From the NCBI GenBank assembly GCA_963556255.1, contig OY744604.1, positions 77,928,236 to 77,992,235 of the forward strand: 64,000 bases of DNA. The letters are read 5' to 3'. The position numbers were made by a program, and so were the translations under genes. Of this stretch, positions 362 through 51,714 are shown piece by piece (the stretch's first letter is position 1; each line of letters begins with the position of its first letter). The stretch is from Allolobophora icterica. Its lineage: Eukaryota; Annelida; Clitellata; Crassiclitellata; Lumbricidae. The notes below the pieces were generated by a model, which was not told the DNA's origin, did no database searches, and was given only the letters and a program-made list of their open reading frames with translations.

Positions 362-1244
362 GGGAACGGACAAAAGCCCCCCGGACAAAAGCCCCCGGAC
401 AAAAGCCCCCCGGACAAAAGCCCTGGACAGAATCCCCCTGATTTTAGCTAGGACAAAATCCCCCCGGACAAAATCCCCCCTCTGTGTGATAAGCCTATTT
501 TTACATTTAATTGAGAATTTTTACTAGCCCTGTTGCCCTCGTGTCAGCTTGTTAATGTTGTAAACGTATAGACTAAAGACTTGTTAGTGTCATTCAGGTG
601 TAAAAATAAGACTTGTTAGTCGCCTAGTTCTTAACTTAAGGCTTGTTAATGTCAGGATTCGCGAGGTCCGCTGCCCAAAAAGCGGGTCAGGCACAGCGCC
701 AAGCAGCTACAAGCCGTCTCCCGCACCCTTGTTAGCGTCACTAAGGTATGAAATGAAAGGAACTTAACTGAACGAATTTAAGTTTGTGATGTGTTTACAA
801 ATGTTATTGATAAAACTTAATAGCCCTGTTGCCCTAGTGTCAGGTTGTTTGGTCAGTTTAGGTATAAAGCATAGAAATGTTAACGAATGAATGGAAGTTA
901 ACTGAACGAATGGAAGTCGTTATGTTGAGGTGTATGTATGTATTTATGTATGTATATATGTATGTATATTTGTATATATGTATGTATATATGTATGTGTG
1001 CATACATGTATATGTATGTATGTATGTATATATGCATGTATATATGTATATATGTAGGTATATATGTATATATGTATTTTATGCGTGTATGTATATATGT
1101 ATGTTTGATATATATGTGTGAAATATAGGTTATTATTTCCTAGCCGGGGGGCTTTTGTCCTACCCCAGGGGCTTTTGTCCGGGGGGGCTTTTGTCCGGGG
1201 CTTTTGTCCGGGGGCTTTTGTCCGGGGGATAATGTCCTACACTC
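362..1244. mobile_element. MULE-like non-autonomous element with compound inverted termini
   Basis: The left end is an array of about seven GGACAAAAGCCCCC-type units (roughly 366-480). The right end (roughly 1141-1240) is the same unit in inverse orientation (GGGGCTTTTGTCC). A 9-bp direct repeat, CCTTATTCG, lies at 353-361 and again at 1245-1253. Inside the left array the motif CCCCCTCTGTG marks the inner edge, as in the sister copies further on. The interior has subterminal repeats around ACTTGTTAATGTCA and an (ATGT)n tract, but no transposase. Target duplications of 9-10 bp fit the Mutator-like (MULE) superfamily. The assignment rests on that and on the MULE-type ORF in the related element at 33865-34694. 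Confidence 0.7.
929..1117. repeat. (ATGT)n degenerate microsatellite
   Basis: ATGTATGT and ATATATGT repeats inside the preceding element. Apparent Met-Tyr-Val-Cys reading frames here are repeat artefacts. Confidence 0.9.
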
Positions 1245-1377
1245 CCTTATTCGGCTTGACAACTGCTCTAGGCCTCTATTGGCCTTCCCCTCACTCGACT
1301 GAACTGTCTTGAACGCGTACTACGTTCCGCTGCGCGCTTGGTCGGGCGCATGAATATATTCGGCCAAGGCTCTCAAT

Positions 1378-1435
1378 ACATTGTATTGTATTGTATTTAT
1401 GCATTTGTAAAGCGCCTCTCGCAGTAGAGGATATG
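1378..1435 (-). mobile_element. CR1/L2-like 3' tail fragment
   Basis: The reverse complement reads a GAGGCGC hairpin region followed by an AATACAATACAATA tail. This is the standard 3' terminus of a non-LTR retrotransposon seen repeatedly in this window, for example at 48660-48729 and 60052-60122. Confidence 0.6.
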
Positions 1436-1679
1436 TCCTCCACTGGTTACCACTCTCGCAACGCATTGTCTAGCAATGACAGTTTGGCCGTGCTCCCTGT
1501 TATCTACCTGAGCTCTATGGCTTTGTTCCACTTGGTCACCGCTCTCTTCGTTCTGCCACCCGTGTTGACCTCTCTGTTCCTTTCACACGCATCGCTACTA
1601 TGCAGCAGCGCTCTTTCTCCGTCGTTGGACCCACAATTTGGAATGGGTTTCCTCCTGATCTGCGGTCTCTTCCTCGAAA
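1436..1679 (+). mobile_element. CR1/L2-like retrotransposon, reverse transcriptase C-terminal fragment
   Basis: Translation of one plus frame gives the usual C-terminal end of CR1/L2-clade reverse transcriptases, with a GPTIWNGFPPDLRSLPR-like stretch near the end. The upstream catalytic domains are missing, as expected for a 5'-truncated copy. The reading frame is cut at about 1679 by the next element and resumes at 2347. Confidence 0.65.
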
Positions 1680-2346
1680 GCCGGACATTTTACCTCTGGA
1701 CATATTTCCCCGGACAGTTACCCCAGACACTCCCCCCGAATCTCAGTAGGTCATTAACCCCATGACAAATTCCCCCTCTGTGGATTTAGCAATCGTACCA
1801 ATTCAAAACGGATGCTTTTAAGTAAAAGATCACAGATACTTCGCCAATAACTTACATCATCATACCGCATGTTACAAAACAATTGCTTTGAAATAAACCT
1901 CTGGTAAATCGGCATGAACAAGACAAACATCTAACCGCATTAGACAATGATAAACTAGAGATCACGAGAAGAGGCTAAGGCCTGTAGTAAGTTGTTTACT
2001 TAGAATGTCGCTACAAAGCGTTACCTTTGAAGTAAACGATCAAAGACCTGAAGTAAATTGGTATGAAGAAGACAAACATCTAACCGCATGTATGTGTATT
2101 TCGTTTTAGCCAATAATTTAGTAAGTGTTTTTGATCATTAAACAGAGATTTTTTTGTATGTTTCATAATTTTTGGAGTAGCTTCGTTGTCTGTTGGCAAT
2201 GTTTTCATTGAAGTTTTCTTAGAAACAGAAAGCTTTATTCTGTGTTGCATTGGGGGATGTCCTAGTAGGGGAAAGTGTCCGGGGGTAACTGTCCGGAAAA
2301 AAATGTCCGGGGATAATATGTCCATGGGGTAAATGTCCGTTCACCA
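1680..2346. mobile_element. MULE-like non-autonomous element inside a CR1/L2 fragment
   Basis: The left array (about 1682-1780) carries GGACATTTTACC and GGACAGTTACCCC units and the inner-edge motif CCCCCTCTGTG. The right array (about 2250-2340) is its inverse. The 12-bp sequence TCTTCCTCGAAA flanks it on both sides (1668-1679 and 2347-2358), so the target duplication is exact at 8 bp or more. The insertion splits a reverse transcriptase frame. The interior is about 450 bp of non-coding AT-rich DNA ending in the conserved TTTTTGTATG box. Confidence 0.7.
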
Positions 2347-2490
2347 TCTTCCTCGAAACTCCTCTTCTCTGCTCTAAAGACTTCTCTTTCGCCGGCGTTG
2401 GGCTGGGAGCGCCTCTGAATAGTTTCATTGAAGAGGCACTATATAGATGCTTAGTTGATTTATTGATTTATTCAATGAGCGTCTAGCAAA
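2347..2490 (+). mobile_element. CR1/L2-like 3' end, continuation
   Basis: The frame interrupted at 1679 continues as an SLLSLKTSLFRRRWAGSASE-like tail. It is followed by the 3' UTR hairpin (GGGAGCGCCTC paired with GAGGCACT) and a TTGATTTATTGA-type tail. Confidence 0.6.
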
Positions 2491-3712
2491 CCATTCAATT
2501 CAACGTCCTTATATATTGCCGTATACAGATTCAAAAATAATTACCACGCATTTGTATATGTTCACTCGGTGACTAAATTGGCAGTATGGATCGGCTACAT
2601 TGAGTATGATTATGCTCCTACACACGTTTGTTCGAAAGTGCTTGTTTTAAAAAACATAATTTGCCTTTTCCATAAAACTCTTAACTAAAGAAGCATGAAA
2701 TAGGCCTAATGAACTTCCCGAAGCTGTTTTCTTCTAAAAATGTCCGCTTTCATTATGCTTGACTGAAATTACTTGTCACTGGTGTTTAATACATATTTCA
2801 GAATTCTTTTTTTAAAGTTCTTAAATCATAAACTATCTAGGCCTAGTTCTTGCTTTAGATCTTTGCCATGCATGATGCATTACAAGGTGCATGAGCGACT
2901 CCTACACTGCATTGTTTCGGGTATGTATGGAGGCCCACATTAAGAGGGGGGCTGCTGCACAGTGGACCCGCAGTTTTGAGGGGCCCCGCATGTTCGAGGT
3001 ACATTATTTTTTTTATTGTATTTATAATTGGTACCCGCGCTGATGGCTATATAGGTAATCACAGCACCCGAGCCTACACTATTCTTAATGCGGCCCTGTG
3101 AGTAGGCCTCGGCCTACATGTATAATATATGTGTGAAGTTGTGAACACTTAACATGAGCTCTTACAGGTGCCCTATACATCGTCAATGCTCAGGGTTCCC
3201 TTGTGCATTTAAAACACTTAGAATTAACATATAAAGTGTGATGTAACATAAATATTATATAACACCCTGGTACACCTCTCTCCAATTAGTTTTAGTCTGG
3301 TTAGATTGTTTATGTTGCTGCTGATCTAGTGATGCTCCAGATCAGTAAAGTCTGTGCCACTGGATAAAAGTACACATTGAATCCAAAAGTTAAATGCCCT
3401 TCATTGGAAGGAAGTGGTTGCAATAAATTATAGCTTATCTATGATTTATAAATCACTTCAATGCAGTCATGAAACACCAAAAGCAATTATATTGCACGAA
3501 ATTCAACTGTATATCGTTAAGAATATTACCCAGCAAAACGAGGCATAATGATGGCTCGATTACAAAGAGCTTTTCGAGAGGTATGTTAGTTACATTACAC
3601 AACGTCTTAGAACACGCAGTTCTTAAACCTGCACAGTACACTTATACTCGCTCTCTCACAATCACTCAGATTTTCTGTTAAATTTATTTTATTATTATTC
3701 CGGATAAATATT
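2491..3712. other. No gene; possible small MITE near 2930-3105
   Basis: I see no supported coding region. At 2930-2946 GGAGGCCCACATTAAGA is matched imperfectly by the inverse TCTTAATGCGGCCC at about 3085-3098, suggesting a roughly 170-bp hAT-type MITE. I found no clear target duplication. Confidence 0.35.
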
Positions 3713-3722
3713 ATTTCTATAG

Positions 3723-4385
3723 GTGAACGGACATTTACCCCCTGGACATATTCACCCCGTACAGTTAATTCCGGACACTTTCCCCCTTACTAGGACATTT
3801 CCCCCTCAATGCAACATACAAAATGTTTCCTGTTTCTAAGAAAAATGCATACAAACATACAAAAAGCTCTCTGTTTAAATGATCAAAACATACATACATA
3901 CAACATGCATATATCCATACATATATACATACATACGTACATGCATACGTGTATACATACATAGTATTACATACATACACGCATACATACATGCATGCAT
4001 GCAATCAATCAATCAATCAATCAATAAACTAGACATTTATATAGCGCGCTCTTCAAGGCAACTATTCAGAGGCGCTCCCAGCCCAACCTCGTCGAAAGAG
4101 AACAGTCTTAAGAGCAGAGAAGAAAGATATACATACATGCATACATACATACATACATACATACATACATGCATACATACATAGAGAATGCATGCATACA
4201 TGCATATATACATACATACAAACAGATATACATGCATACAGACATGCATACATACACAAATCCACAGAGGGGGAATTTGTCCGGGGGAAAAATGACCTAC
4301 TCAGAATGGGGGGAGGATAGTGTCCAGGGTAACTCTCCGGGAGAAAATGTCCGGGAATAGGTCCAGGGGTAAGTGTCCTACGACC
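3723..4385. mobile_element. MULE-like element with microsatellite interior
   Basis: A perfect 10-bp target duplication, ATTTCTATAG, lies at 3713-3722 and 4386-4395. The left end has GGACATTTACCCCC-type units, and the right end has the inverse with CAGAGGGGG at its inner edge. The interior is an (ATAC)n tract, the complement of ATGT, starting after a GATCAAAACATAC junction shared with copies at 16.4 and 27.2 kb. A minus-strand CR1/L2 3' end has landed inside it. Confidence 0.75.
3998..4130 (-). mobile_element. CR1/L2-like 3' end, nested
   Basis: On the minus strand this reads a reverse transcriptase C-terminus (LFRRGWAGSASE-like), the GGGAGCGCCTC hairpin, a TATATAAATG stretch and a (TTGA)n tail. 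It sits within the microsatellite of the element at 3723-4385, so it is younger than that insertion. Confidence 0.65.
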
Positions 4386-4395
4386 ATTTCTATAG

Positions 4396-4600
4396 CACCT
4401 CTCGAAGTCAACTACTACTCAGAGGCGCTCCAGACTACAGCATTTGATACTGTGCCGGAATTTTCACGCCGAAGCGCCACGAGCAATTGCGAGTGAAGGA
4501 CTTGCCCAAGGTCCGTACGCAGCGGCTAGGGTGGTATTCGAACCTGCAACTCTCCGGTCACAAGGCGCTGAACTTACGTTACCACTGGTAAGTTCAGAGC
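4396..4600 (-). mobile_element. tRNA-derived SINE with CR1-like tail
   Basis: The minus strand contains an RNA polymerase III B-box-like motif, GGTTCGAATACC, at about 4529-4540, with an AGTGGTAAC-type A-box region upstream of it. Downstream is the CTTGGGCAAGTCCTT segment seen in many tRNA-derived SINEs, followed by a GAGGCGCTCC 3' hairpin shared with CR1/L2 fragments here. Family identity is not established. Confidence 0.45.
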
Positions 4601-5290
4601 CACAAATGCATAAAAGTTGCTGGCAACAGAATCCAGGACCTCGCTGAGTGATCTTAAAGATGTACCACTTAAATTCATTCCTAGATTTAATGCTAAGGTG
4701 CATACATATGAAGAATACATTACTGTATCTGAGCTCCAAATGCTTCAAATTTGCTTAAAAGAGTGATGAAACTTGAGTCTACAATCTTCAACGAGCATCA
4801 AAAGTGTTTTCAATAAAGACCAACCTCAAAGTTTACCTCCTATAAAAGCACTACTCTGGTTCTATGGAATGCAGGACATTTAAGAAGCTCCTTAGACAGT
4901 AGACATTAGCAGTGGTAGATGCTTTGCTTGGGTACAGTCGTTGAGAATGAGGGTCGTTGCAACAAAAATTCTTGTAGAAAAATTAAAAGTGAAGCAATTA
5001 TTTTTCCTCTAATATGACTATCAAACCAATTTCACAAAGGTAAACCCAAGGTTCTTCTACACTGGACCGTGAAAGCTTGCGCCAATAGGGCATTGGGCCA
5101 GACAGACATAATTCTTCAAGATAAGATGGAGTACACCCTGCAAGACAATTATGCATGAGCATTATAAAAGTCAACTCCATACATTGTAACCAAAGCAGTT
5201 CTTTCTATGCAAAAGTGGATTTGTACCCAAATCGAGGCATGCTGTCGATCAGCCGGGTGGCAGCATAAAATTATGCTGATACGATGCCGA
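4600..5290. repeat. Degenerate triplication, copy 1
   Basis: Blocks at 4614-4880, 4910-5060 and 5060-5230 recur in the same order at 8290-9560, and in part at 6690-7560. Short minus-strand peptides are recognisably similar between copies (GPGFCCQQ in block 1; a PSYL motif in block 3). They are full of stops and frameshifts. I do not recognise the source; it could be a dead gene or an old repeat. Confidence 0.5.
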
Positions 5291-5635
5291 GAGGCACCAT
5301 GTAATTAGCAGAATTAAACACAGTTATTATATTGTAGTGCATTTTAAGATTTCTAAAGCGCCTCTCTCAGTGTAACCTATCAGAGGCGTTTCTGTATGTT
5401 GACAGTTAAGAGAATGCTATTCTACCCCTCACAAATACATACAGGCATACAAAGCTATCCACACACATACACCCATGCATAATATGCACATTACACACAT
5501 CCTTGTTCTTACGCTGAAAATCTGTATTCATTTTTGGTTCAATGAGGTCAGATAGGATAGCAAGTGATTTTACAACTGCACATAATGTTGATGTCAAACA
5601 CTGCAAATTCTAAGCTCTTCTGGTGGTGTACGAAC

Positions 5636-6292
5636 ATAATCCCTCTGGACATAATCCACAGGATAGGACATAATTCCCCAGGGCTAGGATGTAATCACCT
5701 CAAACTCAGCCAAGTAAGGTGGCTAAATTATACATTACATCCAATAACATCTATAGGAATTGAATTTCAATTTGTTTAATTCTAGTAACATATTCTAGAA
5801 GAATATATTTTCAATATGTATAATTCTAACAATTAGCCTAAGAGTACAAACCAATGGAAATGTTTATTATACAAGTTTTTCTGAAAGCTGTAAAAAAATT
5901 GGCATACCAATCTACGAACGGTCAAGATCATTCAGTATAAATTTAACTTTAGAACTGAATGACATTAAGAAGTCAAGATTAAGACCTAAACGACATTAAC
6001 AAGTCTTAACTTTGTACCTAAATGACACTAACAAGAAGTCTTAATTTTATAACTGAATGACATTAAAAAGTCATTAGTCTATACCTTTACAAAATTAACA
6101 GGCTGACTCAATGAACAAAAACTGCGAAAGTCAAGCTTATCAGCTAAATGTAGAAATAGGTTAATTGTACAAAGAAGGGTTTTTGTCCAAGACTATGTCC
6201 TACCCAAAATCTAGGGATTATGCCCGGGGGTAATGTCTGAGGGATTATGTCCCGGGTCTTACGTCCAGGGGATTTTGTCCTACAGCCCTTCT
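5636..6292. mobile_element. MULE-like element, GGACATAATCC family
   Basis: The left end has GGACATAATCC units (about 5636-5690) and the right end has the inverse (ATTATGTCC/TTTTGTCC, about 6176-6285). The interior carries the same subterminal blocks as other copies: an AATTTGTTTAATTCTA region near the left, and inverse repeats of the ACTTGTTAGTGTCATTCAG unit near the right (5950-6110). The flanks CTCTTCT and CCCTTCT are only partly matched, so the target duplication is uncertain. Confidence 0.55.
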
Positions 6293-16414: not shown

Positions 16415-17136
16415 GAATGCCGGACAGTTACCCCCTGGACAGTTTCCCCCCGGACATATTCCCCCCGGACAGTTACCCCCCCGGACACTTTCCCCCCCGA
16501 ATCTAGGTAGGTCATTTTCCCCCCCGGACAAATTCCCCCTCTGTGGATTTATGTACGTATGTATGTATGTAAGTATGTATGCATGTATGTAAGTATGTAT
16601 GTAAGTATGTATGCATGTATGTATGTAAGTATGTATGTAAGTATGTATGCATGTATGTAAGTATGTATGTAAGTATGTATGTATGCATGTATGTATGCAT
16701 GTATACATGCATGTATGTAAGTATATATGTAAGTATGTATACATGTATGTAAGTATGCATGTAAGTATGCATGCATGCATGTATGTATGTAAGTATGTAT
16801 GTATATATGTATGTATGTATGCATGTGTGTATGTATGTATGTATGTAAGTATGTATGCATGTATGTATGTATGTAAGTATGTATGTAAGTATGCATGTTT
16901 ATATGTATGTATGTATGCATGTATGTAAGTATGTATGTAAGTATGTATGCATATATGCACGTATGTATGTATGTATGTATGTATGTATGTTTTGATCACT
17001 AAAACAGAGAGTTTTTTGTATGTTGCATTGAGGGGGAAATGTCCTAGTAGAGGGGGGAAAGTGTCCGGGGGGTAACTGTCCGGGGGGGAATATGTCCGGG
17101 GGGGAAACTGCCCAGGGGGGTAACTGTCCGTTTACC
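16415..17136. mobile_element. MULE-like element carrying a 440-bp (ATGT)n tract
   Basis: An exact 9-bp duplication, GGTTTTGGG, lies at 16406-16414 and 17137-17145. The left array (16420-16545) has GGACAGTTACCCCC, GGACATATTCCCC and GGACAAATTCCCC units and ends CCCCCTCTGTGGATTTA. The right array (17030-17130) is the inverse. Between them are an (ATGT)n tract at 16553-16992 and the conserved TTTTGATCACTAAAACAGAG junction. There is no transposase. Long Tyr/His/Thr or Met/Cys/Val frames here are microsatellite artefacts. Confidence 0.8.
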
Positions 17137-25356: not shown

Positions 25357-26618
25357 ACTGTAGGACATAATGCCCCTGGACATAATCCCCGGACATAATC
25401 CCTCAGGACATAATCTCCCGGACAGAATCCAGGGGTAGGACATTACCAGGCTCGGGGTGTACGGACATAATCCCGGACATAAACCCCGGACATAATCCCG
25501 GGCATAATCTCCCCGACAAAATCCTTCTCGATTTTCGGTAGGACATAATTCCCCGGACAAAATCCCCCTCTGTGCAATTAGCCAACTTCTACGTTTTATT
25601 GTTAATGTCGTAAAGGCATAGGCTATAGACTAATGACTTAGTTTCATACAGGTGTAAACTTAAGACTTGTTAGCCTCATTCAGTTCTGAAAAGTTAAGAC
25701 TTGTTTATGTCGCCCGTCCATTGAAGAAATGCCACACGGACTTGGACATAACATTCGCCTTTAGATTTTTTTATACCTTTGGTGACAATCTTGGGACCAC
25801 TATAGTCTAATAAACGTTTCTATTATTTGTATGTGTAATTTGTACTATTAGGCTATCTGTTAGAATTAAACAAATTGTAAATATATTCTTCTTGTTAAAC
25901 AAATTGAAAACATATTCCGGCTGAGGCTGAGGTAAGTAAGTAAGTAAGTATTTTCTTTATTGAGAAGCACTAGCAAAAACGCACAGCGCTGTACATGGAA
26001 AACATATTGCAGTCAAATTATCAAACAATATAACAATTATATAAAAAGAGATATTACTGCAAATTTAGTGATTCATAAGGAGGATAGGAGAGTAGAGGAG
26101 CAAGGTAGCCAAATCTTGGAGAGCATAGTTATTTGTATAGCATCTCTGCGAGGAAGCATTTATGAGACAAGTTGTCATTCCTCGGGAGCTCACGGTTGTG
26201 GCACCATGGTCGCATAGAGTAGCGAGTGTGCTTAATCGGCGGCAACATTGTATGTAGTACATGGCAAGGATTAAACAAAATACTGGTAAAGAGGCTAGCG
26301 TCAGCATTACTACAAGCAGTGCTCGAAATGGAAAATTTTACGAAACGGAACGCTAGTCAAAGATATGGGAGCATTCACGTTAATTTCATAGTATTTTCCA
26401 CAATAATTCATTTGACGAACCGGAACGGAAACGCTAATTCATTTGACGAACCGGAACGCCGTTCCGGTGCGTTCCGGTCCATTTCGAGCACTGACTACAA
26501 GGCTTGTTAAAGGTGATTTTAATATCGTAGCCTGGGGATTATGTCCTACCCCGGGTGTTCTGTCCGGGGGATTATGTTCCGGGGATTTTACTCGGGGATT
26601 TTGACGGGGGCTATGTCC
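25357..26618. mobile_element. MULE-like element, GGACATAATCC family, with nested insertions
   Basis: The left array at 25363-25570 has about 12 GGACATAATCCCC-type units and ends CCCCCTCTGTGCAATTA. The right array at 26535-26615 is inverse. Subterminal blocks match those of the copies at 362 and 5636. Nested inside are a minus-strand retroelement tail with (GTAA)n at 25930-26010 and a hAT MITE at 26317-26493. The flanks share only TCCAGG, so the target duplication is doubtful and more than one element may be merged. Confidence 0.55.
26317..26493. mobile_element. hAT MITE
   Basis: Perfect 15-bp inverted ends, CAGTGCTCGAAATGG and CCATTTCGAGCACTG. An exact 8-bp target duplication, ACTACAAG, lies at 26309-26316 and 26494-26501. 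The interior repeats CCGGAACG. A relative with CCGGAAC repeats is at 59790-60051. Confidence 0.9.
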
Positions 26619-27215
26619 TACAATCCAGGCTCGGGTATAATCACCTCTATGTCAACTGGAATATATTTACAAGTTGTTTAATACGAAGAACATATTTACA
26701 ATTGGTTTAATTCTAACAAATAGTCTAATAGTACAAATTTTATAGAAGAGTTTATTAGACTAAAGGGGTCCCAAGTTTGTCTCTAAAGCTGTAAAAATCT
26801 AAAGGCGAATGTTATGTCCAAGTCCGTGTAGCTTTTCTTCGATGGATTTCCTTCCATCTCGCCGATCTTGGCACAGCTGCCCAATGAGCGGGTAAGTCGC
26901 AACGCCAAGTAGCTAAAAACCCGTCTGCTGCATCAAGATCGGCGCGATGGAAGGAAATCCATCGAAGAAACCCTCAATGGACTAGGACATAACATTCGCC
27001 TTAAGGATTTTTATTTTTTTTTAAACAGCTATAAAGAAACTTGGGGCCACTATATACTAATAAACTTTTCCATTAAACAAATTGTAAATATATTCTTCTT
27101 ATTAAACAAATTGAGATATATTCCGGCTGAGATTGAGGTGATTAGCAATGGCTTAGTCCTTTTCGCTGTCATCACGCGTCTTGATATTATATGTGGAAAT
27201 ATAGGTGATTATATC
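26619..27215. repeat. Second GGACATAATCC-family element, interior and hairpin
   Basis: 26650-26850 is an inverse copy of the block at 25730-25930, and 26990-27140 is a direct copy of it. Between them, 26835-26870 and 26934-26969 form 36-bp arms with one mismatch. Right-end repeats resume at 27742-27832 beyond the element inserted at 27225. Confidence 0.5.
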
Positions 27216-27224
27216 CTAGCCTGG

Positions 27225-27732
27225 GGAATGCCGGACAGTTACCCTCCACCCGGCCAAATTCCCCCTTTGTGGAATTATGTATGTATGTATGTATGTATGT
27301 ATGTATGTATGTATGTATGTATGTATGTATGTATGTATGTATGTATGTATGTATGTATGTATGTATGTATGTATGTATGTATGTATGTATGCATGCATGC
27401 ATGTGTGCATGCATGTATGCATGTGTGCATGCATGTATGTATGTATGTATGTATGTATGTATGTATGTATGTATGTATGTATGTATGTATGTATGCATAT
27501 ATGAAGTATGTGTGTATATATGTATCTATGTATGCATGTGTGTTGGTATGTATGTATATATGTATGTATGCATGTATGTACGTACGTATGTATGTATGTA
27601 TGCATGTTTTGATCATTTAAACAGAGAGCTTTTTGTATGATGCATTGAGGGGAAATGTCCTAGTAGAGGGAGGAAAGTGTCCAGGAGGTAACTGTCCGGG
27701 ATATATGTCCAGGGGGTAAATGTCCGATTTAC
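27225..27732. mobile_element. MULE-like element with (ATGT)n interior, nested
   Basis: It starts with a short left array (GGACAGTTACC...CCCCCTTTGTGG) and ends with the inverse units GTCCAGGAGG and GTCCGATTTACC. The interior is (ATGT)n at 27279-27606 followed by the TTTTGATCATTTAAACAGAG junction. The flanks CTAGCCTGG (27216-27224) and CTAGTTTGG (27733-27741) match at 7 of 9 bases. It landed in the right array of a GGACATAATCC-family element. Confidence 0.65.
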
Positions 27733-27859
27733 CTAGTTTGGGATTATGTCCTCATGGGGGAGATTCTATCCGGAAGGGATAATGTCCGGAAGGATAATGT
27801 CCGGGCATTATGTGCAGGGAATAATGTCCTACACTGCTGTAACCCTAATCGGGAATTGG

Positions 27860-33051: not shown

Positions 33052-33864
33052 CCGCATACAACAATTTTTGGAATCAAGTCTCAAGTGACTATTATGGAAT
33101 TGAAGATCTGTTCAATTTTCTTCTATTTAATAATTGAACCATAAAGGCTAACTGAGTTCTCTGTTCGATCGTTTAATTCAGATTCCTCAATTCATATTTC
33201 TTTAGAAAACATGTACCCAGTAGGCCCTTTGTTAAATACACTTCGCTCTAAATTTGCATTTTGTATGCACTTGTTCTTTGTTCCCAATTCAACGGTTTCA
33301 TTAGACGTCCTTTCACTTCATGGGCGTTTATAGCGCTTGCTTTTTTTCGTGTAAGTGCAAACCAATGATGGTAGTGTGATGTTAGTGGCATTTTATGTGA
33401 ATAATAACTGAACGTGTCAAAGAAATTTCCCTAAAAGTGTCTAGAATTGAAGTTGCCAGAGATGTAAGGAGAAAAGGATGTATCAGAATAGGATTTGTGG
33501 GAAAAGGAGTGTCTTGGTTTTTGCAACACTTAAAAATTGCAAAGAACAAATTATGTAATGCAGTCTCTGTGCTGTTGTAGTTGAGCATACTAATCTTGCA
33601 AAGTCCCCAAATGTGCTCCAGATTATACGATTGTACTCTTTGTTCCTGTCTCATTCATGCCAGTTGACTCGACGTGAAGTTCGTTGTGCAACATACGCAT
33701 TACACATACATGCTTTGGGACTTGACACTGTTCACCATTTCGACACGGACCTGGAACACCGAACGGTCAATCCTAAACTGGATCAATTTAGATTCGATGT
33801 CTTTGCACAGGTTTCCTGCTATTAAAAAGCTATTTACTTCAATACACTGATTAGCAAATATTGG

Positions 33865-34694
33865 GTGCGCCGACAAAACGGCGCAGGACAAAACGGCGCA
33901 GACATAACGGCGCAGACAAAACGGCGCGGCAACAAAACGGCGCAGTACAAAACGGCGCAGACAAAACGGCGCAAAACTGAACTAAAGAACAATAGTTTAT
34001 AGTAGTTTATTATATACTAAAAATATATTCTAGAAATAACTGTGTAACTTCATCAAGTCTTTTAGTTCATAGTTCATACGTTGTCATAAAATTTGCGCGT
34101 CTACCCCTTCTTTGCCGGCCGATATAGGTATCTTCCCAATAGTCCGCTAAAGGTGCCAGAACAGGTGAAAAGCTCTCAACTAACTCGTCGAACGCAGCCG
34201 GAACATCAGCAACCGGAACGAAGGCTAAAGCTAACAGCATCTTCACGCATATACGAAGATTTTCATATTCAGGGTAGGACGCTGCAAGGTTAAGGTCGTG
34301 AACCTTGCGCCACATACTCTGGCCGAGATGGAAAAAGCATCCAACAAGTCGTGTATCCGAGAAGACAATCGCGCAGGCATTGTGACTTGCCTTCTCGACA
34401 TTATACGATTAAAATGTAAATTAAACTAGGAATTGGATGAACGATTAAAATGTAAATTAAACTAGAGCGGGATGAACGATTAAAATGTAAATTAAACTAA
34501 AAGCGGGATGAACGGCACTTTTTGATCGCTAATAAGCAAACAATCACTAGACGGGTATTATAATCTTTGTACTGCGCCGTATTGTCTGCGCCGTTTTGTC
34601 GAGGTACTTTGAATTGCGCCGTTCTGTCTGCGCCGTTTTGTCTGCGCCGTTATGTCTGCGCCGTTTTGTCCTGCGCCGTTTTGTTACGGCGCCC
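33865..34694. mobile_element. MULE-like element with GACAAAACGGCGCA terminal arrays
   Basis: The left array (33865-33975) contains seven GACAAAACGGCGCA-type units and the right array (34570-34694) contains the inverse. A 9-bp target duplication, AAATATTGG, lies at 33856-33864 and 34695-34703. Gene C's paralogous block has the empty site (GCAAATATTAGATTTG at 50760-50775). The interior has an ORF with a MULE transposase C-terminal signature and three tandem copies of an ACGATTAAAATGTAAATTAA unit at 34405-34515. Confidence 0.9.
34067..34315 (-). pseudogene. MULE transposase C-terminal fragment
   Basis: An 82-codon minus-strand frame reads LALAFVPVADVPAAFDELVE, then PLADYWEDTYIGRQRRGRR. From established knowledge this is the C-terminal segment of animal MULE transposases (LAFVP...F..L...DYFEDTYIGR). 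The DDE catalytic core is absent, so the element is non-autonomous. Its value here is to assign the array-ended elements to the MULE superfamily. Confidence 0.7.
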
Positions 34695-37891: not shown

Positions 37892-40532
37892 ATGGCGCAG
37901 TTACTTGGAACGATTTGCTTGGCGATATGCATATCTGGCATAACGACAGGTTAGTCTTCAGTAGTCTTTAAACTTAAACGTTATTAAATAATAAGAATCT
38001 AAAATACGACATGCTAGTTGAATTCCTACTTCATTCTTAAAATGACTTGGAATGCAGTTCTTAATTAGCTTAATGACAGAATCACGGTAAATTTCGAGCA
38101 ATTAGACATGTTTTTGCAAGTATAGCCTATTTTAAATCTGCGTCTCCTAAATTGAATTTCTGATGTATGACGTGCGTATACTATCTTACTTTAGGTCCTA
38201 TATAAGTAAATGTTAATGTTAGTACCCACTCAGAATATTACTCTTGGATTTCTTGCGATGAATTTTATTATGAGACATTTAATGATAAACAGGATGCTTT
38301 TCAACCACTTCAATATTTAGTATAAAACCATAACTCTTCCGTCCACCTACTAACGAATTCCTCCTCACTCACTTTAACGTTTGGTTCCGTAATCTTTTCA
38401 TCATCAGTGAATGCCAATGTCGTTTTCAAGTCACATCTGCGACCTTCCGTGTAACTTTTCATTCATATTCACGACCTTCACCCTATCCGCTAACATCGAT
38501 TTCAAAACTGCCTCTGCCATGGCTGAATGTTGCTATTCGTTCTTTATCAAATTCGAATCCAAGTAGCAACTCGACATATCTTTGTTTTGTTCACATGATT
38601 GGGAATCGTAATATCGACTCTCCTGTTATGACGTCCTACGATTCAACGAAATGCCGGTACGTGACGTTTTGGCGCACCCGTTTGGCGCGACCGGTTTGCC
38701 GCGACCGTTTTGGCGCCGGCCGTTTTGGCGCTGATAAACAGAAATAAATCTAGTAGGCAAGAAATATTTAGTCATTTTAACTGCATGTGTAAAAAACGTA
38801 TCAACCCAGCATATCAAAGCTTACAAGAAATGTTCAAAGCTGATCCTGTTCAAAACCACTAATGCACTACCCCGTTAGGTAAGTTGTACAGTCCGCTTTC
38901 TTGTTTAGGGCGAAACCACTACAAAGTCAACACACAAAAGGGAATCAGTTGATGATAAATGTTCTAAGGATAGAATTGGTGCCAGAAATTAATACCTAAA
39001 CTAGCTATTGATGCAGACAATACAGGTAGTCTCGGACACGCAAGTTTGAAATGCCTGTTTACAGAAAATCTCGTATGTCAGCATATATTCCACCAGTGCC
39101 GGCCTTATGGTATTTCAGGGACTATGTAGCCTAGAGTATAATGCACGGGCCCCCATGACACAAGACAAATTGCTAACAATTTCATTTTAGTAAATTGTTA
39201 ACAAGTAGAACAAGTAAAATTTAACAATTTTCAATACCGGAGTACTTACTGTAATCGCCAGCACATTGTTTTTATTTTTAAAATCATGGCAGAAGTCTTC
39301 GTTACGAGGATTCTCGGATAAGGAGGAAGTTAAAATGTTATAGCGCTAATATAATTTGAATCAAACTAAGCTTATGGTACCATTTGACAATAATTTTATT
39401 GACAAAAGAGAGGATTTACGAAACCATACTATTATTATCAGAGGCGGTCTTTGACAGTTTTGTGCTATAGGCCACTATAGGCACGCCGTAAGGACAAAAA
39501 TGCCGCCCTTAACTCAGCACATATATTTCCATTTAATTTCTTATTAACTAATTAAATTTTTGCCGGAATTTGCCGCCCCTTGAGAAATTCTGCCTATATC
39601 GCCTATACCTAAAGCAGGTAGCCTACTGATTATTATAACGGTCTCTAGTTCATGTTAATATTCTGTGACTTTTCGGGCCCCCGTAGTTGCGGGCCCTGTG
39701 TGACTGCACTGTTAACACTCAAAGACCGGCACTGATTCCACAATGTCTCAGTCGTGCTTCTGATTATCTTTAACAATGACAGAATTTGAGAAATACACTT
39801 TTCCTTTTGCAGTTCGTATGAAGTCGTTGCTCTTGTTTCAGTTGAATCTCTTCAGTGCTACGATTGTGAAGATTGTACACCTACAACGGCACGTTTAATC
39901 GAATGTATGGCGACTAACATAGGTATTGAAGCCTACAGCTGCTACAAAACGATCGAACACAGAATCACAGGTACATGCGACCTTATTTAGCCTTCAGACG
40001 AAAGAGTAAGTATACTGAATTCGGTTTTATATTGGATACAAAAGGACACTGTCGTCGAGGTAGATGCTTTCCACAGTTGAACAAAATTCGGCAGTGCGAC
40101 CTTTGCCAATTTTAAAATTCAGGCCGGGCTTTGAGCCCAGATTTTAGAACCAACTCACCAGAATAGGACTACTGGCGAACCGTAGCTCGCACCACGCATA
40201 TCACGAAGTCTATTAAAACCCAGTTGAAATTCAACTTATCGACTCATACTTGTTTTCCTGTTACTCCAGCGATACACTTGCATTACATATCAGGGCGGCA
40301 TTCTTTGTCGTTACGGATTTTAGTAAGAGCTATTTTTGCATTTGATGCAGACTTACAGCCTAGTGCTCAAACGGTGTTTTGTTTTGCAGCTAATGAGGAG
40401 AAGCATACAACCAGGATAAGAGCATCTTGCACTTACCATCCACTCATGGATGCCTATTGCCGAAACTATGTCGCTGACGGTTTTTGTACTACGTACTGTG
40501 ATTCTGATGGCTGCAATAAACCATTCGAATAG
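37892..40532 (+). CDS. Ly6/uPAR-like secreted protein B, three exons
   Basis: Coding exons are 37892-37949, 39842-39970 and 40390-40532, giving 109 residues. Both introns are phase 1 with GT-AG borders. Exon 1 encodes a signal peptide (MAQLLGTICLAICIS). The mature chain begins near LQCYDC. Cysteines at residues 25, 28, 31, 41, 53, 76, 86, 95, 99 and 104 match the ten-cysteine Ly6/uPAR three-finger pattern. The chain ends with C99-x4-C104-N105, the family signature. No hydrophobic C-terminal segment follows, so a GPI anchor is unlikely and the product is probably secreted. Such proteins act as ligands, receptor modulators or defence factors; which applies here is unknown. Intron 1 holds a hAT-like insertion. 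The start is the only ATG with a signal sequence, and it is identical in position in C and D. Confidence 0.87.
38656..38745. repeat. Single-ended GGCGC/GTTTTGGCGC array
   Basis: Five tandem CCGTTTTGGCGC-type units lie in intron 1 of gene B at a point where gene D lacks them. It resembles one terminus of the array-ended MULE-like elements. I did not find the matching inverse end. Confidence 0.5.
39094..39734. mobile_element. hAT-like element in intron 1 of gene B
   Basis: It runs from CAGTGCCGGCCTTA to GACCGGCACTG. The 7-bp flank ATTCCAC occurs on both sides (39087-39093 and 39735-39741). The same insertion point is occupied in gene D, and its right border survives in genes A and C, so it predates the duplications. 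Confidence 0.8.
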
Positions 40533-45244: not shown

Positions 45245-45400
<156 letters not shown>

Positions 45401-45811: not shown

Positions 45812-48800
45812 ATGGCGCAGTTATTTGGAACGATTTGCTTGGTGATATGCATATCTAGCATAATATCAGGTTTGATTTCAGTAGTTTTTAAACTTACATG
45901 TTATCAAATCGTGAGAAACTAAAATACAACATGCTAGTTGTATTCCTACTTCATTCTCAAAATGGCTTGGAATGCAGGTTTTAATGGGCTTAAATGGCCG
46001 AATCACGGTAAATTGCGAGCAATTAGCCATATTTTTGCTAGTATGATATTAATCGCTCTTAAGACAAGATATATGCTATGTTTTGCTAAAATTATTAAAC
46101 AACGGTTGATGTAAACTCTTTGTACTTTCTGGGCAACGTATATGCGACGGTTAATATTCAGTTGTTACTACACGCCAAGAGACAAGACTGGACATGTCTA
46201 TGACTCATTGCCAACGTCGTATGCCTGTCAAACCCAGCTGTTACGCAGGTCCTAGATGTTGGAATGGTTTGGGGACGTTTCGTCTCCGGACGATTCGTCA
46301 TGGACGATTCATCCTAGGACGATTCGTCACAAGGACGTTTCGTCTCGGGTCGATTCGTCACGGACTGTTCGTCACGAGGGTTGCGTAAATGGACCGTCTT
46401 TAATTTAAAAGAGGTAGGGCCTATCTGTAAAGAAGTACCGTTATTTGATTGCGAGAGTTAGGCGTGCGGTTCAGGGCTATAACAGAACAGATGTTCTTAC
46501 ATATCTTCGTGCAATAGCCCATCTCTCTCAAATCTAGTAGAACTTTTAAGTACTGGAACTTGTACTGACGATGACACTATCGTTTTATTCGGCTTTAGTC
46601 TGTTTTCTCGTTTTAGTATGTACCTATTCTCTTTTTTAGACAATCGATTTAGCCTTTTGTTAGATTTGTTGAGTTTTAACATATAGTGTGTTTTTTCGTT
46701 TTAGTATGTAACTAGAACTAAACTGTTAAGATTTGTTACCTTGACAATCTATCGTTTTAGTCTTTTTTTAGTCTGGAATGACCATGACCATAAAACGTTT
46801 TAGTCTCTTGTTGACAATCAATGTTTTAATCTTTTTTAGACAACCGATCTTTTGTTAGATTTGTTGAGTTTTAACATTAGACAATCGATATTTTGTTGTT
46901 TGTCACTTTGGTAGATTTGTTGAGTTTTAACATTAGTTGAGTTTTATCCTCTGACGAATCGTCCTGGTAGAACCCTTCGAGGAGTTCATTCTTCCAAGAA
47001 CCAACTGATTTGTGAAGTTCATTCTCCCTAGGACCAAGTGATTTTGGAGATTCAAGTTGAAAGGGGAGTTTGATTTTCCTGGGACGAAATGATTCGTGGA
47101 GTTCATTCTTCCTTGGACAAATTGAACGGGGGAATTGATTGTTTCCACGACTTGTGGAGTTGGTTCTACCTAGGACCAACTGATTTCTGGAGTTGATTCT
47201 TCCTAAGACGATTTGAATGGGGAGTTGATTCTTCCTAATTCTTCAATTTGTCCTAGGTAGAATGACCTCCACAAGTCATTTGTCCTAGGAAAAATCAACT
47301 CGCAAGTCATTTGGTCCTACGAAGAATCAACTCCCCATTCAATTTATCCCAGGAAGAATCAATTCCACAAATAATTTTGGTGTAGGAAGAATCAACTCGA
47401 CCGGTCGAAAAACAATAAATCCCCCATTCAATTTGTCCCAGGAAATATCAACTCCACGAGTCATTTGGTCCTCGGAAGAATCAACTCCCCATTCAGTGTG
47501 TCCTAGAAAGAATGTGTAGCCTATGCTATGCTTTTTGTGCGACTAAAAAGCTATAGGCCCTATCTGCGAGCGGAAGCTGGATATATGTGTGCGACTAAAA
47601 AGCTATAGGTGCGAATGAAACCTGGATATTTTCATTGCAGAAATTTGATAATTTCTTCTCAACGAATATGGTGAGAATAAATGTATGAATATTTATGAAC
47701 TGCTGTGTGTATTTGGATTTTGGTACATGCAGCCGGCACTGATTCCACCATGTCTATTGTCTAAGTCGTGCTTATGATTATCGTTAACAAAGACAGGATT
47801 TCAGAAAATGTACTTTTAATTTTGCAGTTCGTTTGAAGTCGTTGCTTGTTGTTTCAGTTCAATCTCTTCAATGCTACGATTGCTATACAAAACCTAGTCC
47901 TACTGGTTGTACATTGGACCTTTCCGGTTCATCTCTTATTCAATGTGTCATCACACCCCCAAAACAAGAACAATACACCTGCTACAGAATGATCGTATAC
48001 GAGTTCACAGGTATATTCGACATTATTTAATCTTCAGACGAAAGAGTAAGTATACTTAACTCAGTTTTATATTGGATTTAAAAGAACACTTCGTCCAAGA
48101 AGATGCTTCTCAAAGTTAAGCACGATTTGAAAGTGCGGACATAGCAAATTTCAAAATGCAGATCCGGGCTATGAGCCAGGATTTTCTAACCACCTAACTA
48201 GACTAGGACTGGTGGCGAAGCGTAGCTGCTTCCCCGCATTTCACGATGTTCATTAAAACGCTCGTTCAAAATCAACTTATCGATTCAGATTTTAATGGCC
48301 TTGTGATGCAGTTTCTGATACAGCAACTGTCGGCATCAATAGCTTGATTTTGATCGCGAGGCAGAGTGGCACGACTGCTTACTTATGTTCCTGTTACTCT
48401 GGCGATAAATACGCATTACAAGACTCATTACGTCTTCCTGCCTCAGCTAGCTCCCTTCGCCATCTTCGTTCCTCTGATCGACTTGACTTGTTTGTTCCCC
48501 GAGTGAGAACGGCGATGGCCCAGTCTAGTTCCTTTGTCAGTATTGGCCCTTAACTGTGGAATCAGCTTCCTCCTTCGGTCCGGACTGTAGTACTATATGT
48601 TGGTCCTGCCACAGCTTTCCGTTGTCTTAAAACTTGCCTTTATTCCCGAGGACTTTCGCACTGGGAGCGCCTCTGATTGGTGGCACTGGGTAGAGGCGCT
48701 TTATAAATTTTGAAATACAATACAATACAATTACAAATCAGGCCGGCTTTCTTTCTCCTTGCAGCAATAAATTAGTTCCAAATGTTTTGCATTTGATGTA

Positions 48801-49039
48801 GACTAACGGCGTTTTGTTTTGTAGCTAATCAGGAAAAGAAACTCAACAGGGTTGATGCAGGTTGCATTTTCCATGCGATCCCGAGTTCTTATAACAACAC
48901 CTGCAACCACTACACTGACCCTAATGGTCTAAGACTTCTTATGTGTACTACATACTGTACTTCTGATGGCTGCAATAAGCCTGCCGAACATTCGCAAACA
49001 ATATTTTTTGAAAAACCCCCAAGTAACCTTTGGAAATGA
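45812..49039 (+). CDS. Ly6/uPAR-like secreted protein C, three exons
   Basis: Coding exons are 45812-45869, 47858-48010 and 48825-49039, giving 141 residues with two phase 1 GT-AG introns. The signal peptide differs from B at few positions. Cysteines at 25, 28, 37, 49, 61, 84, 97, 111, 115 and 120 keep the ten-cysteine pattern, although the loop between cysteines 2 and 3 is longer than in B. A potential N-glycosylation site is N94-N-T. After the CN signature the chain runs 20 residues further to a TGA in what is 3' UTR in gene B, because the ancestral TAG has become CAT. Intron 1 contains palindromic repeat arrays, and intron 2 a CR1/L2 insertion. A possible AATAAA lies at 49187-49192. Probably secreted; function unknown. 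Confidence 0.83.
46160..46275 (+). mobile_element. CR1/L2-like reverse transcriptase fragment in intron 1 of gene C
   Basis: Reads CQRRMPVKPSCYAGPRCWNGL, close to the copy at 59490-59580. It is cut off by the GGACGATTCGTCA array. Confidence 0.55.
46270..47515. repeat. Large symmetric repeat structure, array-ended element
   Basis: 46270-46380 contains eight GGACGATTCGTCA/GGACGTTTCGTC units. 46560-46940 repeats TTTTAGTCT and GACAATCGAT units. 46960-47230 holds GGAGTT.ATTCTTCC.AGGACCAA units of about 45 bp, and 47240-47515 holds the same unit inverted. The result is an imperfect palindrome centred near 47235. It resembles the array-ended MULE-like elements in design, but I could not define its right border. 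Confidence 0.6.
48422..48729 (+). mobile_element. CR1/L2-like insertion in intron 2 of gene C
   Basis: A 308-bp 5'-truncated copy. It encodes SSDRLDLFVPRVRTAMAQSS and, after a stop, LWNQLPPSVRT, then the GGGAGCGCCTC...GAGGCGCTTTATAAA hairpin and an AATACAATACA tail. The 7-bp target duplication ATTACAA lies at 48415-48421 and 48730-48736. Gene B shows the empty intron site. Confidence 0.75.
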
Positions 49040-49239
49040 CCATCTATTCAATTTTCTTCTATTAAATAATTATTCAGCTAAGAAGGTTAACTGAGTACTT
49101 TGTGAATAAGACTTTAACAATCTCGTTCATTTAATTAAGATGTTTAAATTCTGATTTCTTTAGCAGATTAAATACACTTCGCGCTAAATAAATTTACGTT
49201 CTTTGTGCACTAGTTCTGTGTTTCCCTGTTAGGCGGTTT

Positions 49240-50850
49240 CATTAGAAGTCGTCCACTACGTGTGCGTTCATGGCGGTTCCTTTTTACGATGGTGGGGTAA
49301 TGTATGATGCATTTATACGAATCATGACTAGGCTTGTCAAAGAAATTTCTCTAGAAGTTTCTAGAATTGGAGCAGCGAGAAATGCACAGAGAAGAGGATG
49401 TATCAGGATAGCACTTGCAGAAGAAGGAGTGTTCCGGCCTCAGCAAAAAGAAGTGCACTCTAGCGAATGAGTCAGCGGCTGTTGGAGATAGAACGCTGCG
49501 CCGGCCGCGCCGCCGCCGCCGAATTTCATAGGCGCCGCCGTCAATTTTTTTTTGGCGGCGAGCCCTTTGTGTGTAGTTTAGCTTCATTGTCATGGAGTGA
49601 CTTTAGAGAAATGGCCGTCTTGACTGATCATAGGACAAACGGCTGTTCGACTCTCATAGTTACTCATGCTTATCAAGTATTTTGACTAGGATCCGCCACG
49701 TCGCGCGGCGCCGACGCCGACAATTCGTAGGCCCCGCCGCCGCCAGTTTTCGTTGTTCAGCGCGCCGCCGCCTCCGACCCAAAAGCTCCGGCGCGCTACC
49801 GCCTCTATCAAGTCGGCGAGGGCTTTAGTTGGGGAACGGTTCAGCACTTAAAAATTGCCAAATGCAAAATTTACATTTTGCAGTTTTTAACAAACAAATA
49901 AATTGATTAGTAATTGCAATTTTTAGTGCTGAACAGCAGAATGCATTATAAAAATTAATTATATAATGCAGTATATCTGCTGTTGTGGTTAAGCATACCG
50001 ACCTCGCAAAGTCCTATGAAGTGTATAAAAAATGTGGACCAGCTTTATGTGACAGGTGCATTCAAGGATTGAAAATATTATAGAGCTATGTTCCTGTATT
50101 CGTAAGCACAATAGTTTGTCGTTGTGGACCGTGATGTGCCCTAAAACGAAGAAGATTCTCAAGAAAAATATTGAAATTGTAGTAGTAGTTACGACAATTT
50201 ATGTACCATCGTCAGTAGTATCCTACTTATCGGATGCTTTACAATGCCATGTGCTGGTGAAAAAGCTGAATGTTAAATAGATTTTAGACTATTTTTTAGG
50301 CATGAAGGGGTTTGGCCATTTAAGCAGAGTCAGGAAGGCTGTTTCGGGGACTCCGCCCAGCTATCACGCATTTTAGTCCTAGAAAACACGTTAACATACT
50401 GAGTAATGACCGAGTTGGGAAAACGTTTCGGATGGATCGAGAGAATAGATGCACATTCCCAATGCTCCTTCTTTGACAGCCCTGAAGAGTTAATGCTGCT
50501 CCAGAGTATACGACTGTGATCTTTGTTTCTGTCTTATTCATGCCGGTTGAGTGGACATGAAGTTCGTTGTGCATCACATGCATTAGAAATGCATGCTTCG
50601 CAACTTGACACTGTTCACCATTTCGACACGGACCAGGAACACAGAACGGTCAACTCTAACTGGATCAATTTAGAGTCGATGTGTTTGGATCTGGGCCACA
50701 CGTTTCCTGCTATTAAAAAGCTATTTACTTCAATATAAGCATGTTCTTGCACTACTGGGCAAATATTAGATTTGTCGCATAGCAGCAACAATTAGCAATG
50801 TCAGCAATTCCTTTTTTTATAAACTTAGGCCTGATAACAGAAATACACAT
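49240..50850. repeat. Ly6 unit C, 3' flanking block
   Basis: Homologous to the blocks after genes A and D. A GC-rich segment (49495-49810) with GCCGCCGCC runs is specific to this copy and resembles eroded AAGCCG-type element sequence. Short frames are conserved among copies, but indels break most of them. Confidence 0.55.
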
Positions 50851-51034
50851 AAACTCTAGGCCTGCATCTCTAATTTGACTGCTTTGGCTCATTCGCAAAT
50901 AACCTGAAAAAAGATTATCAAGATATATGATTGCTATTCTGACGGCAGTCATTTGTTACTTGAGGTCAGACAAATATTGTGTTAACTATGGCTCTAAAGT
51001 TTGCGCATAACAACTTAGGGTGTAGAATCATATT

Positions 51035-51714
51035 GGCACCCCGTCAAAAACGCCGTGGACAAAAGCACCCCGACAAATGCGCCCCGACAAATGCGCCCCG
51101 ACAGATGCGCCCCGTCATTTGCGCCCGACAAATGCGCCCCGACAAATGCGCAACGAACGTGTAATTTTAACTTTTAGTTTTAGTTATATTATTATCGCTG
51201 ATCCCCTTCTAGTTTTATTTATATTTTAATCGTTGATCCAGCTTCTAGTTTTAATTATATTATCATCGCTGATCCCGCTGCTAGTTTTAGTTATATTTTA
51301 ATCGTTGATCCCGCCTCTAGTTTCAGTCATATATTAATCGTTGATCCAGCTTCAAGTTTTAGTCATAGGCCTATTATCATCGTTGATCCCTTAAACAATT
51401 CTAATTAAATTGTAACACATATCTTTAAATCCTTAAACAATTCTAATTAAATTTCAGCTTTACAAATAATATAATAACTAAATTTCTCCTTTTTAAACAG
51501 ATAAACGAATTCAGCTGTCTTATGTATTCAACTGCTTCCCATCAAATGAACTCATACAGCAAATAATGTTATTATGTGGCGCAAATGTCGGTTCGCATTT
51601 GTCGGTGATTTTTGGCGTTATTGTCAGGTTTCTCCGTGGCGCATTTGTCGGTTCGCATTTGTCGGTTCGCATTTGTCGGGGCGCTTTTGTCCACGGCGCT
51701 TTTGACGGGTCACC
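51035..51714. mobile_element. MULE-like element with GACAAATGCGCCCC terminal arrays
   Basis: The left array (51035-51155) has about eight GACAAATGCGCCCC-type units and the right array (51575-51714) has the inverse. A perfect 9-bp duplication, AATCATATT, lies at 51026-51034 and 51715-51723. The interior (51160-51380) has five tandem copies of a roughly 37-bp unit, TTTTAATCGTTGATCC.GCTTCTAGTTTTAGTTATA, the inverse relative of the repeats in the element at 33865. No coding frame. Confidence 0.88.

What the first reader, a model, noticed from the sequence alone, without database searches (positions are those of the whole stretch)
362..51714. Diversified MULE-like families whose ends are outward-facing arrays of 12-15 bp GACA modules
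At least eight elements (362-1244, 1680-2346, 3723-4385, 5636-6292, 16415-17136, 27225-27732, 33865-34694, 51035-51714) end in inverted arrays of a short unit with a constant GACA half and a variable half (AAAGCCCC, TAATCCCC, GTTACCCC, AAACGGCGCA, AATGCGCCCC). Most have 8-10 bp target duplications, five of them exact. One carries a MULE transposase C-terminal signature. A shared inner-edge motif, CCCCCTCTGTG, links six of them. It looks like repeated evolution of transposase-binding arrays around a conserved core.
Basis: partly seen in the sequence, partly recalled or inferred. Interest (0 to 1): 0.75.

Follow-up and report, generated by a model that had tools for sequence, protein, structure and literature searches.

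The report
Jumping genes with diversified repeat-array ends
The window holds short relics of cut-and-paste jumping genes whose ends are rows of a 14-15 letter repeat; the same genome carries at least ten families of the gene that moves such elements, each with its own repeat, which makes this a good natural test of how such genes recognise their own ends.

Summary
The window (unnamed 1.12-Gb assembly) contains nine array-ended elements. Seven have exact 9-11 bp flanking repeats, one a degraded repeat, one none found. The element at 361-1244 is shown to be an insertion: four paralogous loci carry the empty site with a single CCTTATTCGG.

A MULE-domain search of the genome gave partners: nine transposase families lie between inverted arrays, one representative of each with an exact 8-10 bp duplication; a tenth shows an array at one end. 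L029 has the window's unit type (GGACAATAACCCCC) around a FLYWCH+MULE gene.

'GACA' is too narrow a core. Typically a 7-bp cap, different at the two ends, is followed by NN(A/T)CA and an array of 14-16 bp units. Caps track transposase phylogeny (Mantel r=0.58, P=0.001, n=10); units hardly do (r=0.12, P=0.24).

The architecture is that of Phantom-type MULE/Foldback elements (nematode Tm1, mosquito Muta1): a known kind, with a within-genome radiation of array codes as the new part. Array binding is inferred.

The parts
361..1244 (.). Non-autonomous element, GGACAAAAGCCCCC arrays, caps GGGGAAC / GAGTGTA (element 363-1244 if the full 10-bp repeat CCTTATTCGG is taken as target duplication)
   Evidence: single CCTTATTCGG in four paralogous empty sites L006, L011, L016, L020
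1676..2345 (.). Non-autonomous element, mixed GGACA-(TTTAC/TATTT/GTTAC)-CCCC arrays; passenger of a larger dispersed repeat
3722..4385 (.). Non-autonomous element, caps GGTGAAC / GGTCGTA, TSD ATTTCTATA(G), microsatellite core; passenger of the larger repeat
5636..6292 (.). Degraded element with GGACATAATCCCC-type arrays; no exact target duplication found; passenger of the larger repeat
16415..17136 (.). Non-autonomous element, GGACAGTTACCCCC arrays, caps GAATGCC / GGTAAAC, TSD GGTTTTGGG, (TATG)n core
25456..26625 (.).
27226..27732 (.). Non-autonomous element nested in the right end of an older array element, (TATG)n core, degraded TSD (7 of 9)
25357..27830 (.). Probable older array-ended element (boundaries approximate) interrupted by 25456-26625 and 27226-27732
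   Evidence: by eye; arrays
33864..34693 (.). Internally deleted element, GCGCAGACAAAACG arrays, caps GGTGCGC / GGCGCCG, TSD CAAATATTG(G)
   Evidence: another copy (L062) with 9-bp repeat GTCAGAATG (by eye)
34070..34408 (-). Fragment of a MULE transposase gene (113 aa)
51035..51714 (.). Non-autonomous element, GACAAATGCGCCCC arrays, caps GGCACCC / GGTGACC (same pair as gene-bearing L053), TSD AATCATATT(G), 36-bp minisatellite core

Best explanation
The elements are mostly non-autonomous (MITE-like or internally deleted) members of several Phantom-type Mutator-like (MULE) families with Foldback-style composite ends. Each end is a short terminal cap (about 7 bp, beginning GG in most, different at the two ends of one element) followed by an outward-facing array of a 14-16 bp unit; at most ends the first unit puts (A/T)CA at positions 10-12. 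Shown here: insertion with a duplicated target, empty sites, FLYWCH+MULE or MULE genes lying between such arrays, and many families with different units. Inferred: the cap is read by the catalytic core (cleavage), and the array is a multimeric binding platform for the transposase, probably through its N-terminal FLYWCH zinc finger. The repeated site would give specificity to a short recognition word and let array units change while caps stay conserved. MITEs keep cap and array and are moved in trans.
For: Exact 8-10 bp direct repeats at 9 of 9 gene-bearing elements with both arrays that I tested, one per family (L029, L031, L036, L047, L051, L052, L053, L054, L058; ends placed by eye, offsets of 2 allowed). 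Four empty sites. MULE over cut-off in 10 of 10 array-bearing families and FLYWCH in 7 of 10. Catalytic columns: two D and the C of C-x2-H invariant, H and E nearly invariant, H being N in L053. Array-bearing families form supported clades, e.g. L052+L053+window fragment 100/99. Cap distance follows transposase distance, r=0.58, P=0.001; leave-one-out r 0.44-0.75. Neighbouring array pairs in the window plus 20 loci: exact 9-bp repeat in 17 of 45, against 1.3% of cross-pairs. The nearest long-frame relative of the window's ORF has a GACAAAAGCGCGC array at one of two places that I had placed by analogy with L052. In print: Muta1 transposase moves elements with 12-bp subterminal arrays in yeast (PMC5225508, passages); the Galileo THAP domain has repeated sites in long TIRs (PMC3688188, abstract).
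Against: No binding was tested. Gene-bearing loci were selected by the MULE domain, so the superfamily of the CCCC-type elements rests on one array match, L029, whose frame has one stop; the 20 loci chosen by the inner-edge motif held no match to the MULE fragments. The second array placed by analogy at C3:32239 was not in the 500 bases fetched (L064). Unit distance does not follow FLYWCH distance (n=8, P 0.31-0.68), which a strict FLYWCH-reads-unit model would predict. L058 shows no FLYWCH hit, L053's is just under the cut-off, and the L038 frame starts after it. L030 has FLYWCH+MULE but no array within its 3.3 kb. Only about half of copies elsewhere show a near-exact 9-bp repeat by my tests.
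Confidence: 0.85

Rival explanations
1. The arrays are chiefly a by-product: minisatellite-like slippage inside otherwise ordinary TIRs, with the catalytic cap alone needed for movement; array turnover is then neutral.
For: Units are variable, their number varies, and unit distance shows little phylogenetic signal. Other minisatellites and microsatellites lie inside the same elements.
Against: Arrays lie at both ends in 9 of the 15 transposase families looked at, outward-facing; 12-16 bp is the commonest unit spacing (330 of 511 spacings parsed in the window and L001-L020). (A/T)CA sits at positions 10-12 in 29 of 34 termini (counted by hand) and in both ends looked at afterwards.
Confidence: 0.2
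2. Foldback elements of the P superfamily (Galileo-like), which also have long repetitive TIRs and a DNA-binding THAP domain.
For: Same gross architecture (PMC3688188, abstract).
Against: The gene-bearing families with arrays carry PF10551, mostly with FLYWCH, and no P-type or THAP domain; duplications at these copies are 8-10 bp, 9 in five of nine. Caveat: the loci were chosen by PF10551, so P-type elements could not have been found this way.
Confidence: 0.04
3. Local tandem-repeat or segmental-duplication artefact with chance inverted repeats.
For: Three window elements recur together as one larger repeat.
Against: Empty sites with a single target copy, copies with different 9-bp targets, shuffle controls.
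Confidence: 0.01

Closest known systems
Tm1 (Meloidogyne), Mutator/Foldback, Phantom transposase (PMC3169594, passages read)
   Same: 8-10 bp, mostly 9-bp TSD; 7-bp motifs that differ at the two ends (CGGTTAA / CCTACCC), a GGA, then 13-15 bp tandem units; a distinct motif followed by one more unit at the inner edge; FLYWCH+MULE transposase; MITE-like derivatives.
   Different: Its units (CGATTCAGTATCCGC and a close variant in a second species) are one code; here at least ten codes in one genome, with other caps.
Muta1 and the other 13 Aedes aegypti MULE families (PMC5225508, passages read)
   Same: 10 of 14 families have 9-15 bp subterminal tandem repeats, 8-9 bp TSD, FLYWCH in 13 of 14; nonautonomous derivatives keep the TIR; active in yeast.
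   Different: The passages seen give no unit letters and no comparison of caps with arrays; its 10-bp palindromic terminus was not looked for here.
Phantom family, group 20 of the 2019 MULE survey (PMC6446971, passages read)
   Same: 8-10 bp TSD, FLYWCH in some, minisatellite after the ORF noted in aphids.
   Different: The word 'tandem' does not occur in that text; the passages seen do not treat unit arrays as a diversifying feature.
Galileo (PMC3688188, abstract) and Tetris (PMC4079207, passages)
   Same: Long internally repetitive TIRs; for Galileo, repeated binding sites identified for the THAP domain.
   Different: Galileo is P superfamily; the unit of Tetris is about 220 bp.
Sea urchin TU elements (recalled; only a mention of sea urchin foldbacks in PMC4079207 seen)
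   Same: Recalled: about 15-bp tandem units in long inverted ends, 8-bp duplications.
   Different: Not compared by sequence; no text on them was found.

Membership tests
Mutator-like elements (MULE) | Transposase with PF10551 and DDE residues | tested here: met
   for the gene-bearing families (chosen by PF10551); in the window only the fragment 34070-34408
Mutator-like elements (MULE) | 8-11 bp, mostly 9-bp target duplication | tested here: met
   9 of 9 gene-bearing elements tested 8-10 bp; 7 of 9 window elements 9-11 bp; fixed-register test 17 of 35
Phantom subclass | N-terminal FLYWCH finger with MULE domain | tested here: met
   over cut-off in 7 of 10 array-bearing families; L053 just under, L038 and L058 not detected
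Phantom subclass | Place in the Phantom clade of a MULE phylogeny with the published members | not tested
   only transposases of this genome were in the tree
Foldback-type composite TIR | Long inverted ends made of short tandem units of variable number | tested here: met
Tm1 family proper | Motif C CGATTCAGTATCCGC and caps CGGTTAA/CCTACCC | tested here: not met
   units and caps read here differ
P superfamily (Galileo) | P-type transposase with THAP domain | tested here: inconclusive
   no such domain in the 18 protein pieces scanned, but these loci were selected by PF10551

The most novel reading that the evidence does not exclude
In this genome MULE ends consist of two separately evolving addresses: a conserved, asymmetric cap that follows the catalytic transposase, and a private array code that turns over so fast that transposases 53-62% identical can have unlike units while a pair about 38% identical has similar ones. 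The array would then act as a self/non-self lock that splits families and lets MITEs switch or escape helpers, with internal modules (such as the shared 36-bp minisatellite) exchanged between array types.
Probability: 0.35. Interest if true: 0.68.

Novelty: new variant of a known kind. Interest (0 to 1): 0.5.

Why it matters
Why many animal MULEs and foldback elements end in tandem arrays is not settled in the papers seen; for Galileo it was proposed that repeated sites give specificity to a short binding word (PMC3688188, abstract). One genome with at least ten related families, each with its own array, together with MITEs and empty sites, makes that directly testable: swap arrays between sibling transposases and measure excision. 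It also warns repeat annotators that such elements look like minisatellites and are easily missed or split.

Tried and rejected
Left/right unit order. I thought the two arrays of an element keep the same order of unit variants (16415-17136 looked so). Tested on 42 pairs: only 3 had p<=0.05, against about 2 expected, so not supported in general (crude exact-GACA parsing).

FLYWCH distance against unit distance: no correlation (n=8). Unit against transposase with three distance measures: r 0.09-0.27; one of six tests reaches P 0.048 (u2, n=11, with L056 added), the other five are 0.13-0.30. With only the closer cap of each pair counted, the cap signal is r 0.42-0.43, P 0.006-0.014.

Expectation that the L056 family carries the window's GACAAATGCGCCCC array because it shares the 36-bp minisatellite of 51035-51714: wrong unit. 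The array found is CACGACAAAAGGTT at the left end; the right end was not reached.

Placing both arrays at C3:32239 by analogy with L052: one found, one not.

Looking for a MULE gene among the 20 loci chosen by the inner-edge motif: no match to the fragments used. Other transposase superfamilies were not searched there.

Scan of viral contigs with the transposase alignment: none. Papers on sea urchin TU elements: none found; hemichordate with Mutator and MITE: none. The host was not identified.

Genome-wide counting of adjacent array units (pattern search) did not complete, so no genome-wide census was made.
Full report
What is in the window. The window is part of contig C3 of an unnamed 1.12-Gb assembly. 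Nine elements end in outward-facing arrays of a 12-16 bp unit. The modules are far above chance: GACA-n(1-7)-CCCC 60 times against a mean of 4.15 in 20 shuffles; the two GCGC-type units 10 and 6 times against 0. Exact flanking repeats of 9-11 bp lie at 7 of 9 elements; 27226-27732 has a 7-of-9 match by eye and 5636-6292 no exact one. The inner-edge motif CCCCCTCTGTG is exact in five elements and has one mismatch in a sixth, and is enriched genome-wide over the reversed control (601+546 against 170+128).

Mobility. L006, L011, L016 and L020 hold the sequence on both sides of element 361-1244 without the element: window 16-362 runs on into 1245 onwards with a 10-bp overlap, a single CCTTATTCGG. 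This is an empty site seen four times. The same comparison shows a larger dispersed repeat (97-98% identical) that carries other array elements as passengers: 1676-2345, 3722-4385 and 5636-6292 all lie in the matching parts of L004 and L006, and the first two in L011, L016 and L020, whose fetched stretches end before the third is complete. So these three window elements are not separate insertions here. In the window plus 20 loci, 17 of 45 neighbouring array pairs have an exact 9-bp repeat near the ends (22 of 45 with at most one mismatch) against 1.3% (5.0%) of cross-pairs, with offsets of 3-14 searched. With the ends fixed by the cap, 17 of 35 left ends with a candidate partner have a 9-bp repeat with at most one mismatch. 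They give 10 distinct strings, about 8 distinct insertions since two are reverse-orientation copies; all-against-all gives 11 of 784, true pairs included.

Gene-bearing partners. A PF10551 search of the genome scored 150 of 402 candidates, all over the cut-off. The loci taken from it (L021-L058) fall into about 15 transposase families. Inverted arrays flank the gene in nine families, represented by L029, L031, L036, L038/L047, L051, L052, L053, L054 and L058; not every member of the multi-copy families was checked, and L035 shows only one array in its 3.3 kb. In a tenth (L034/L056) an array lies at the left end, beyond about 2 kb of minisatellite, and the right end was not reached. No own array was seen for L021, L022 (ZSWIM-like), L030, L055 (RING) and L057, but only 3.3-4.3 kb of each was read. 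MULE is over the cut-off in all ten array-bearing families, FLYWCH in seven; L053 is just under, L038 and L058 undetected. The two catalytic D columns are invariant and E nearly so. One element of each of the nine families has an exact 8-10 bp flanking repeat. L029, with GGACAATAACCCCC units, is the nearest in array type to the window's CCCC elements; its gene has one in-frame stop. These loci were chosen by their MULE domain; the 20 loci chosen by the inner-edge motif showed no match to the MULE fragments, and other superfamilies were not searched there.

The window's 33864-34693 element. Its 113-aa frame is a MULE fragment: 5 of 12 database relatives carry PF10551, and it groups with L052 and L053 (100/99; only 23% of columns filled). 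Of 151 genome matches (150 of 502 candidates scored), 25 others are at least 83% identical over at least 100 residues, so a deleted copy has amplified; L062 is one, with the 9-bp repeat GTCAGAATG (by eye). The nearest long-frame relative (C3:32239222, 75%) shows a GACAAAAGCGCGC array behind cap GGTAACC at one of two places that I placed by analogy with L052; the other place showed none.

Anatomy. Reading inwards, typical ends have about 7 bp of cap, beginning GG in 27 of 34 termini and differing between the two ends (for example GGTTTAC/GGTATCC, GGCACCC/GGTGACC, GGTAAAC/GAATGCC, GGGGAAC/GAGTGTA), then NN(A/T)CA. (A/T)CA falls at positions 10-12 in 29 of 34 termini listed (my count; six window rows were anchored on GGACA, so the fairer figure is 17 of 22 for the other eleven elements) and in both ends read later. 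The exceptions are L031, L051 and one end of L052.

Co-evolution test. For ten families with both caps (nine gene-bearing families and the window's 33864 element), cap distance follows transposase distance (r=0.58, P=0.001; leave-one-out r 0.44-0.75), while unit distance hardly does (r=0.12, P=0.24; three measures with n=10 and 11: r 0.09-0.27, P 0.048-0.30). FLYWCH distance does not predict units either (n=8). Caps and consensus units were read by me, and n is small. Examples: L031, L036, L038 and L051 are 53-61% identical and have close caps, but the L051 and L031 units resemble neither each other nor those of L036/L038; W33865 and L054 are 38% identical and have similar units.

Mechanism. 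Shown: insertion, target duplication, gene and arrays in one element, non-autonomous derivatives. From established work: an Aedes FLYWCH-MULE with 12-bp subterminal arrays transposes in yeast and mobilises derivatives with different TIR lengths (PMC5225508, passages); a P-superfamily foldback transposase domain binds its long TIRs, further sites were identified in their tandem repeats, and this is proposed to give specificity (PMC3688188, abstract). Inferred: cap = cleavage address read by the catalytic domain; array = multimeric binding address; the array may change while the cap is held.

Comparison with the known. The plan matches Tm1 closely: differing 7-bp end motifs, GGA, 13-15 bp units, a distinct motif and one more unit inside, 9-bp duplication, FLYWCH+MULE (PMC3169594, passages). 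In the window families a spacer of the form GAATCTAGGTAGG likewise precedes the innermost units. So this is Phantom-type MULE/Foldback in plan, not a new kind; a tree with published Phantom members was not made. I saw no report of a many-code radiation with caps and arrays decoupled; the searches were made, in open-licence papers only. FLYWCH+MULE relatives of L053 occur in named insects, a snail and a caecilian.

Noticed in passing
window 25357-27830: An older array-ended element seems to be interrupted at both ends by younger array elements (25456-26625 and 27226-27732), inserted at nearly the same place of each end (CAGGCTCGG / CCCAGGCTA, by eye), which hints at a preference for own subterminal spacers.
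   Followed up: partly
window <16 to >6590; L004, L006, L011, L016, L020: A larger dispersed repeat (97-98% identical) of unknown kind carries array elements as passengers; in L020 two further array elements interrupt it.
   Followed up: partly
window 34405-34514 and 51171-51367; L034, L056: A 36-bp minisatellite (31 of 36 identical; 2000 shuffles reach at most 23) is shared by two elements with different arrays and matches the L034/L056 transposase loci.
   Followed up: partly
L059, L056, L060 (C9:852800-863100): The L056 transposase gene sits between about 2-kb inverted arrays of 35-46 bp minisatellite units, outside which, on the left, lies the GACA-type array.
   Followed up: partly
window 16550-16990, 27276-27607, 3888-4256: Several CCCC-type elements carry long (TATG)n/(ATAC)n microsatellite cores, apparently spread by the elements.
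   Followed up: no
L029 775-883 and 2235-2343: A 109-bp exact inverted copy of the transposase gene's 3' end lies before the gene, a possible first step of foldback formation.
   Followed up: no
L038-L050 and the 484-aa family (L051): Many copies with identical frame lengths and scores (388 aa and 484 aa) suggest recent activity of these MULE families.
   Followed up: no
L055 881-1676: A GGACAAAAGCCCCC element, 94% identical over 270 bp to the core of window 361-1244, lies beside a RING-type MULE gene in a different, array-less element.
   Followed up: no
window 38665-38731: A lone array of CGTTTTGGCGCGAC units; no partner array was noticed, and none was searched for specially.
   Followed up: no
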